Source: a virus. Taken from it: 64,000 nucleotides of DNA. Positions 10,842 to 12,290 of the stretch are shown piece after piece. The stretch lies in the IMG/VR virus record IMGVR_UViG_3300028874_000014, positions 1-64,000 of that record, one strand, 5' to 3'. The position numbers and the translations under genes were made by a program. Below the pieces are notes generated by a model. It worked only from the letters and a program-made list of their open reading frames with translations. It did not search any database and was not told the DNA's origin. The number at the start of each line of letters is the position of its first letter. Positions within the stretch are counted from its first letter, which is position 1.

Positions 10842-12290
10842 ATGAAAATTGGTGTTCTTACTGAAGAAGTAAACAATGAAGATGTTGCAATCGCCCTGAA
10901 AGAAGCTGGTGAGAAGCTGGACGTTGAAATTGTAATTTTTGATTTGAATGAATTTGCGGTAGTGAATTCTGGTTCTCCAGAAATTCTATATCAAGGTAAG
11001 CCAATTCAAGATATTGATGCATGTCTTGTACGAGGGTCTGAAAGTAAATTGGAATTCCGTTTGCATATTGTTGAATATTTGACTAAGAAAAATATCTTGG
11101 TTATAAACAATACTGAATCTATTCGTCTGTGCGATAACAAATTTGATACTCAAACGGTATTGAACGGAGCAGGAATTAAAACTCCAAATACCGTTTCATT
11201 AGTCCAAATTGAACAGCTTGATGCTGCAGTTCATATTTTGGAAGAAAAGTTTCCTATGATTGTCAAAACTCAATCCGGGTCACATGGGGTTGGAGTAATT
11301 AAGATTGATTCATATGAAGGGTTGAAATCTATTGTTCAATACTTGTTAGCGCAGAAAACAAATATTATGTTACAAGAATTCATTCCTCATAAAGAATCTG
11401 GGCGTATCATGATTCTTGGCGATAAGGTTATTGCAGCTGTAATGCGTTCTATTCCAGATGGTGATTTTAGATCTAATATGGATCAAGGTGCAGAATTATC
11501 TAAACATGAAGTTACGCCAGAAGAAACTGAGGTTGCTTTGAAAGTTGCGACAACCCTTGGGTGTATCCTGAGTGCTATTGATTACATAGTTGATGCTGAC
11601 GGCAAGATGGTGATTTTTGAAGCTAATAGTTCTCCTGGCCTAAAAGGAATCCAGAGTGTTAATGAAGGAATAGATATTGCTGGTGAGATTATTAAATTCA
11701 TCAAAGATTTAATAGAAAAAAAACCAGATGAGGAAGACGAAGAAATTTCTTCCAAAAAAATAAATGTTGTTGGATACACAGGAATCCATGTAGGCGCACA
11801 GACATCGCCAGGCGCCGATAGCGGCTCTGAAGAAGTTGACCCTAATGGAATCAGCACGACTCCAGTTGATGATGGCGCTGACGGCGATCTGAAAGGCGCT
11901 GATGAAGAGGAAGAAGAATTGTCTTCAGTTGGATTGGAAGAAACTATAGTTATTAAGCGCATCAATGACAATAAAGAATTTTCTGCTAAGGTTGACACTG
12001 GTGCAGATCGTTGCAGTTTGCATGGCGATAAGATTGAAGTTGGCGAATCATTTATTCGTTTTGCATTAGGTGAAACAACGTATAAGGTTCCGTTAGAAAG
12101 AAAGGTTACTGTGATTCAATCTAATGGAAGTGAAAGTCGTCCAATAGCAAAATTTGATGTGGTGTTTAATGGACAAACATATGATGGGATCGAATTCAAT
12201 ATTTCGGATAGATCTGATATGTCACATCAAGTGATCATCGGCAAAAATCTTTTAGAGGTGGCTCAGGTTCTTGTCAATCCAGCTGCATAA
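10842..12290 (+). CDS. RimK-type ATP-grasp ligase fused to a RimB-like retropepsin-fold domain
   Basis: Residues 1 to about 285 match RimK alpha-L-glutamate ligases: VIFDLNEF, IDACLVRGSE, INNTESIRLCDNKFDT, FPMIVKTQSGSHGVGV (ATP-grasp loop), LQEFIPH, RIMILGDKVIAAVMR, GDFRSN and the metal-binding IFEANSSPGLKG. An acidic linker (about 290-360) leads to residues 363-482, a domain of the PF05618 'Zn-protease' family (RimB in Pseudomonas) with a VDTGADRCSLHG active-site loop and a VIIGKNLL segment. In bacteria RimK adds glutamates to ribosomal protein S6 and RimB trims or cleaves; here both activities are in one 482-aa chain. The phage substrate is unknown. Confidence 0.85.
   Translation: MKIGVLTEEVNNEDVAIALKEAGEKLDVEIVIFDLNEFAVVNSGSPEILYQGKPIQDIDACLVRGSESKLEFRLHIVEYLTKKNILVINNTESIRLCDNKFDTQTVLNGAGIKTPNTVSLVQIEQLDAAVHILEEKFPMIVKTQSGSHGVGVIKIDSYEGLKSIVQYLLAQKTNIMLQEFIPHKESGRIMILGDKVIAAVMRSIPDGDFRSNMDQGAELSKHEVTPEETEVALKVATTLGCILSAIDYIVDADGKMVIFEANSSPGLKGIQSVNEGIDIAGEIIKFIKDLIEKKPDEEDEEISSKKINVVGYTGIHVGAQTSPGADSGSEEVDPNGISTTPVDDGADGDLKGADEEEEELSSVGLEETIVIKRINDNKEFSAKVDTGADRCSLHGDKIEVGESFIRFALGETTYKVPLERKVTVIQSNGSESRPIAKFDVVFNGQTYDGIEFNISDRSDMSHQVIIGKNLLEVAQVLVNPAA

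What the first reader, a model, noticed from the sequence alone, without database searches (positions are those of the whole stretch)
10842..12290. RimK glutamate ligase fused to its RimB-like protease partner
One 482-aa chain has a complete RimK ATP-grasp domain, an acidic linker and a PF05618-type retropepsin-fold domain with DTGA. In bacteria the two are separate genes acting in opposite ways on ribosomal protein S6. A phage fusion suggests a self-contained writer/eraser of polyglutamate tags, perhaps remodelling host ribosomes; phage SmpB in the same window also targets the ribosome. The acidic linker itself might be a substrate.
Basis: partly seen in the sequence, partly recalled or inferred. 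Interest (0 to 1): 0.7.

Follow-up and report, generated by a model that had tools for sequence, protein, structure and literature searches.

The report
Phage RimK–RimB polyglutamate ligase–protease fusion
This phage gene joins an enzyme that adds glutamate chains to proteins and a protease that cuts such chains; the fusion itself was reported in 2008, but most of its sister proteins in other phages end in three glutamates, the kind of end the ligase extends, so they may modify themselves.

Summary
Observation confirmed. Window 10842-12290 (+) encodes 482 aa: RimK pre-ATP-grasp and ATP-grasp, a disordered acidic linker with EEEEE, and a PF05618 (RimB-like) domain with DTGA. Both active sites look intact. 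The basic residues that bind polyglutamate in the relative RloA are conserved (K383, R433, R457), so 'polyglutamate writer plus eraser' is well supported. The ribosome/S6 target has no support here.

The fusion is not new. RimK with C-terminal DUF785 (PF05618) was reported in marine phage contigs in 2008, and bacteria have the reverse order (RimBK). I found 81 viral RimK-RimB ORFs, redundant, as one clade, including isolates Mosig and YerA41. All 70 RimB-bearing ORFs in 80 bacterial loci were unfused.

I found no earlier report of this: in the window's sister clade, 17 of 20 distinct fusions end exactly in EEE (an 18th in DEE) after tails that otherwise differ. Among other ORFs in those loci, 1 of about 361 does. 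Codons, stops and spacing to the next gene vary, so selection is on the protein. RimK extends C-terminal Glu and RimB spares runs of up to four Glu, so these fusions may prime and trim themselves. The window clade lacks this tail; its acceptor is unknown.

The parts
10842..12290 (+). Whole gene: RimK - acidic linker - RimB-like fusion, 482 aa, stop included
10842..11123 (+). RimK pre-ATP-grasp domain (residues 1-94)
   Evidence: PF18030
11133..11702 (+). RimK ATP-grasp ligase domain (residues 98-287); K100, K142, R188, R202, R210, N212, D247, E260, N262 invariant in 25 aligned fusions
   Evidence: PF08443 6.2e-38; alignment to solved RimK chains; Foldseek best hits are RimK structures; conservation
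11703..11927 (+). Disordered acidic linker (residues 288-362)
   Evidence: pLDDT under 50 at 295-359; composition
11904..11918 (+). EEEEE run (residues 355-359), identical in L001 and L002 but absent in L252
11928..12284 (+). RimB-like retropepsin domain (residues 363-481); K383, D385, R433, R457 match RloA K46, D48, R114, R137
   Evidence: PF05618, phmmer to 9g58 5.9e-7, residue mapping
11994..12005 (+). DTGA catalytic motif (residues 385-388)

Best explanation
The gene encodes a two-headed poly-alpha-glutamate enzyme. The RimK half uses ATP to ligate glutamate, one after another, onto a C-terminal glutamate; the RimB-like half, acting as a dimer, cuts runs of glutamate back to a short stub. 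In the sister clade the genetically encoded C-terminal EEE is most likely the enzyme's own acceptor: long enough to be extended, too short to be cut, so the protein primes, extends and trims its own tail and may shed oligoglutamate. The window's clade has lost or never gained that tail; there the acceptor is probably in trans (free oligoglutamate, a phage or host protein) or a linker stub exposed by cleavage. Shown: architecture, single origin of the phage clade, intact catalytic and polyE-contact residues, the conserved EEE end. Inferred: both activities, self-acceptance, any physiological role.
For: RimK: Pfam, NCBIfam, Foldseek and residue conservation. RimB: PF05618, 9g58 match, conserved D48/K46/R114/R137 equivalents. 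EEE end: 17 of 20 distinct sister-clade fusions, an 18th DEE; other ORFs in the same loci 1 of about 361 (Fisher p about 1e-25, not corrected for phylogeny). At 60% identity the 13 clusters are 9 all-EEE, 1 mixed, 3 without. Positions -4 and beyond vary, codons are GAA or GAG, stops TAA, TGA and TAG, and the next start lies at -3 to +53 nt, so the constraint is on the protein. Whole-record scan of 20 records, about 2.4 Mb: 15 fusion ends against a handful of others. Six bacterial RimBK fusions seen end in basic tails. Published RimB thresholds: tails with at most four contiguous Glu, counting the encoded one, were not cut; six or more were.
Against: No activity has been measured for any phage member. 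The window's own protein ends NPAA and its three relatives NPAQ, NPTQEK and NPQE. L052 and L073 in the sister clade end in EK. The other phage subclade (DTGN) has no EEE. The tree makes EEE a trait of one clade, so events are fewer than sequences. C-terminal EEE could serve another role, such as a binding motif.
Confidence: 0.55

Rival explanations
1. Ribosome remodelling: the phage enzyme adds and removes glutamates on host ribosomal protein S6 to tune translation for the phage.
For: RimK homology; SmpB in the same window; the analogy drawn in PMC2530865.
Against: No S6-specific feature was found. Desulfotalea RimBK did not glutamylate the RpsF tested. SmpB is 9 kb away with no shared cassette. 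The sister clade carries its own C-terminal Glu acceptor. RimB recognition needs only polyE, not the S6 fold.
Confidence: 0.2
2. The C-terminal EEE is not an acceptor but a regulatory or docking tail, for example a pseudo-substrate that sits in the RimB or RimK site or a binding tag for a virion protein.
For: The tail is disordered and 10-36 residues long, so it could reach either site. A diverged relative in phage YerA41 was found in purified particles by LC-MS/MS.
Against: YerA41's protein has no EEE and the particle set includes many replication enzymes. Exactly three terminal Glu with nothing else conserved fits an end-recognising ligase better than a docking motif.
Confidence: 0.25
3. Polyprotein-like processing: the RimB half cuts the linker poly-E run and separates the two enzymes, exposing a ligase with a C-terminal poly-E stub.
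For: RimB cuts an internal E8 linker in vitro and in vivo. Linker runs: window E5; L001 and L002 E7 plus E5; L012 E8; L050 E6.
Against: Many relatives have no run of five or more Glu; L252 in the window's own clade has at most three. Five internal Glu is at the edge of the measured threshold.
Confidence: 0.15
4. The EEE codons are an artefact of nucleotide constraint (purine-rich ribosome-binding site or overlap with the next gene).
For: Four of the fusions end in TGA overlapping a downstream ATG.
Against: In most cases the next start is 22-53 nt away, codons alternate GAA/GAG, all three stops occur, and neighbouring genes do not show EEE ends.
Confidence: 0.03

Closest known systems
RimK-DUF785 phage proteins in marine metagenomes (Monier, Claverie and Ogata 2008, PMC2530865)
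   Same: RimK with PF05618 on the C-terminal side, in T4-like phage contigs; almost certainly the same broad family.
   Different: DUF785 had no function then; no EEE end, linker or polyE-site analysis was given.
Bacterial RimBK hybrid (Desulfotalea DP2392 and others; Little et al. 2025, PMC11957791)
   Same: RimK and RimB in one chain; RimB half shown to cut polyglutamylated RpsF.
   Different: Domain order reversed (RimB first). The six Rhodobacterales examples seen here have basic C-termini and no acidic EEE tail.
RimA/RimB/RimK system of Pseudomonas
   Same: Same two activities; RimB also stimulates poly-Glu synthesis by RimK.
   Different: Separate genes, rimB upstream of rimK in the loci seen here; targets RpsF.
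RloA retropepsins (PMC12239564; PDB 9g58)
   Same: PF05618 fold; catalytic Asp and three basic polyE-contact residues conserved.
   Different: RloA is secreted; the phage domain is fused to RimK and has no signal peptide.
Cyanophycin synthetase CphA1 (PMC9262961)
   Same: Works alike in principle: an ATP-grasp polymer synthase and a hydrolase that makes primers in one chain.
   Different: Unrelated hydrolase, different polymer; an analogy only, not a member.

Membership tests
RimK family alpha-L-glutamate ligase (TIGR00768 / PF08443) | Family profile match above curated cut-off | tested here: met
   169.8 bits against cut-off 143.4; PF08443 130.7 against 21
RimK family alpha-L-glutamate ligase (TIGR00768 / PF08443) | ATP-grasp fold and conserved ATP/Mg residues | tested here: met
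   Foldseek top hits are RimK structures, TMt 0.91; K100, K142, D247, E260, N262 invariant in 25 fusions; their role in E. coli RimK is from my own knowledge
30S ribosomal protein S6--L-glutamate ligase (PRK10446 equivalog) | Score above equivalog cut-off | tested here: not met
   110.6 bits against cut-off 331: it is RimK-like, not filed as the S6 ligase itself
30S ribosomal protein S6--L-glutamate ligase (PRK10446 equivalog) | Adds Glu to S6 | not testable with these tools
   needs enzymology
PF05618 RimB/RloA retropepsin-like proteases | Profile match with DTG(A) catalytic motif | tested here: met
   42.4 bits against 27; DTGA 385-388, D385 aligned to RloA D48
PF05618 RimB/RloA retropepsin-like proteases | Basic residues that contact polyglutamate (RloA K46, R114, R137) | tested here: met
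   K383, R433, R457; K/R, R and R in all 22 window plus sister-clade rows
PF05618 RimB/RloA retropepsin-like proteases | Cleaves runs of glutamate | not testable with these tools
   needs enzymology
Bacterial RimBK hybrid | RimB N-terminal to RimK | tested here: not met
   order is RimK then RimB in all 81 viral fusion ORFs
Sister-clade RimKB with C-terminal EEE | Terminal EEE | tested here: not met
   window protein ends NPAA; sister clade 17 of 20

The most novel reading that the evidence does not exclude
In many phages this fusion is a self-primed polyglutamate machine: it extends its own encoded C-terminal EEE with its ligase half and trims it back with its protease half, a single-chain self-modifying writer/eraser. 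The window's clade would be a branch that moved the acceptor elsewhere.
Probability: 0.4. Interest if true: 0.75.

Novelty: new variant of a known kind. Interest (0 to 1): 0.5.

Why it matters
The natural targets of RimK-type ligases beyond S6 are an open question, and the one tested bacterial hybrid showed no S6 ligase activity. A conserved, encoded EEE end on the enzyme itself names a candidate target that can be tested with one protein, ATP, glutamate and a mass spectrometer. It would also give a single-chain example of a reversible protein tail made and removed by the same molecule.

Tried and rejected
Fusion as new: rejected, reported in 2008 and in reverse order in bacteria. Fusion order as strictly phage-only: not claimed, since PMC2530865 also names haloarchaeal proteins with PF05618 on the C-terminal side, and I could not fetch any (control search rings in Haloferax). 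EEE as ribosome-binding or overlap artefact: rejected. Another protein in the window's clade with a conserved Glu end as acceptor: none; the 1904-aa tail protein at 23155-28869 ends EE but its two orthologues do not, and no EEE-stop occurs in the window's record. Linker E5 as an invariant feature of the clade: not upheld, L252 lacks it. The RNA-ligase-like EEE protein of L015 and the EEE protein L173 are not homologous to each other.

Full report
What is there. The ORF at 10842-12290 (+) is 482 aa with an ATG start and a TAA stop. Pfam finds the RimK pre-ATP-grasp domain (1-94), the RimK ATP-grasp domain (98-287, 6.2e-38) and PF05618 (363-481, 8.1e-11, above cut-off). The rimK_fam model is above its cut-off, but the S6-ligase equivalog model is far below its own (110.6 against 331 bits). 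The AlphaFold2 model has two confident domains and a disordered linker, 295-359. Foldseek's best matches are solved RimK structures. The genome is a 66.4-kb virus record of T4-like type: portal gp20, prohead protease and major head protein are in the window.

Are both sites intact? On the alignment of 25 phage fusions the residues K100, K142, Q178, R188, R202, R210, N212, D247, E260 and N262 are invariant and align with the same residue types in solved RimK chains. In the protease half, the alignment to 9g58 with an offset of 20 puts K383, D385, R433 and R457 opposite RloA K46, D48, R114 and R137. D48 is RloA's catalytic residue and K46, R114 and R137 contact polyglutamate; R114A and R137A had the strongest effects (PMC12239564). 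The offset is inferred, but it lands on the catalytic Asp and on three basic residues at once. These residues are conserved (K/R, D, R, R) in all 22 window and sister-clade rows. So polyglutamate is the expected substrate of the protease half.

Relatives. Viral contigs gave 81 RimK-RimB ORFs in that order, redundant because searches overlap; 80 bacterial loci gave 81 RimK and 70 RimB ORFs and no fusion, with rimB usually just upstream of rimK. A broader family search in Rhodobacterales found reverse-order RimBK fusions with basic C-termini, as described by Little et al. 2025. Isolated phages Mosig ('putative glutathione synthetase') and YerA41 ('structural protein') also carry the fusion; the YerA41 protein, listed as 'ribosomal protein modification protein', was among particle-associated proteins (identified by its position after the ribonucleotide reductase genes). 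On a RimK-domain tree the phage fusions form one clade (100/99), with the window clade (100/100) sister to a 20-member DTGA clade (100/98) and a DTGN clade outside. Some branches are long, so the deepest joins are unsure.

Prior art. Monier et al. 2008 found more than 100 phage-like contigs with RimK, several with DUF785 (= PF05618) on the C-terminal side, and noted bacterial N-terminal and haloarchaeal C-terminal versions. The fusion is therefore not a new finding. What has changed since is that PF05618 proteins are now known to cut polyglutamate.

What is new here. In the sister clade 17 of 20 distinct fusions end exactly in EEE and one more in DEE; L052 and L073 end in EK. The residues before EEE vary widely. 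Among about 361 other ORFs in the same loci only one ends in EEE. A scan of 20 whole records (about 2.4 Mb) for EEE followed by a stop found 15 fusion ends, some from near-identical phages, and a handful of other ORFs. At 60% identity the clusters are 9 all-EEE, 1 mixed and 3 without, one of the three being the window clade. The nucleotide explanation fails: codons mix GAA and GAG, all three stops occur, and the next start lies from -3 to +53 nt. I found no paper on self-glutamylation by RimK; the library holds open-licence papers only.

How it most likely works. RimK adds Glu to the C-terminal Glu of an acceptor. RimB in vitro does not cut tails with four or fewer contiguous Glu, is slow at five, and cuts six or more. 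An encoded EEE would thus be extendable by the first half and spared by the second: a stable stub. That is an inference; no activity has been measured. It applies to the sister clade. The window's clade (window, L001, L002, L252) ends NPAA, NPAQ, NPTQEK and NPQE, so its acceptor is unknown. Its linker EEEEE is shared by three of four members, L001 and L002 add an E7 run, and L252 has neither, so self-cleavage of the linker is possible but not general.

The ribosome idea. There is no positive evidence for S6. The equivalog test is not met, the one tested hybrid did not modify RpsF, and SmpB, though real, lies 9 kb away. It remains a rival at about 0.2.

Verdict. The C-terminal EEE of the sister clade is the part worth testing.

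Noticed in passing
52095-55028 (+): T4-like portal protein of 977 aa interrupted by an intein (PF14890) with an HNH endonuclease region.
   Followed up: no
13771-14403 (+): A 210-aa protein that looks like a 2-oxoglutarate oxygenase by eye (no Pfam match) lies downstream of the fusion in the window and in many relatives (the 'KSPFLVYQ' gene). Mosig also has an Fe2OG dioxygenase near its fusion.
   Followed up: partly
12307-13020 (+): The gene after the fusion (phrog_19088-like) follows it in all four window-clade members and in L052, the fusions without EEE; most EEE fusions are followed by another gene.
   Followed up: partly
L276, L278, L280, L282, L283; also L272, L273, L274, L284: Phage proteins with a RimB-like domain but no RimK detected: stand-alone forms of about 190 aa and forms with a different N-terminal part.
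   Followed up: partly
L037:7125-9236, L038:4873-6930: RimK-RimB fusions with an extra N-terminal part that resembles a nucleotidyltransferase (TFGRFQPPTSGH), seen by eye.
   Followed up: no
L015:411-2066; L173: Two other phage proteins in fusion-bearing records end in EEE (one RNA-ligase-like, one unrelated): possible extra acceptors.
   Followed up: partly
61187-61951 (+): Papain-family cysteine protease (PF00112) encoded near the phage head genes.
   Followed up: no
8853-9740 (+): Conserved 295-aa acidic protein with long D/E runs two genes upstream of the fusion; could be an acceptor or substrate.
   Followed up: no
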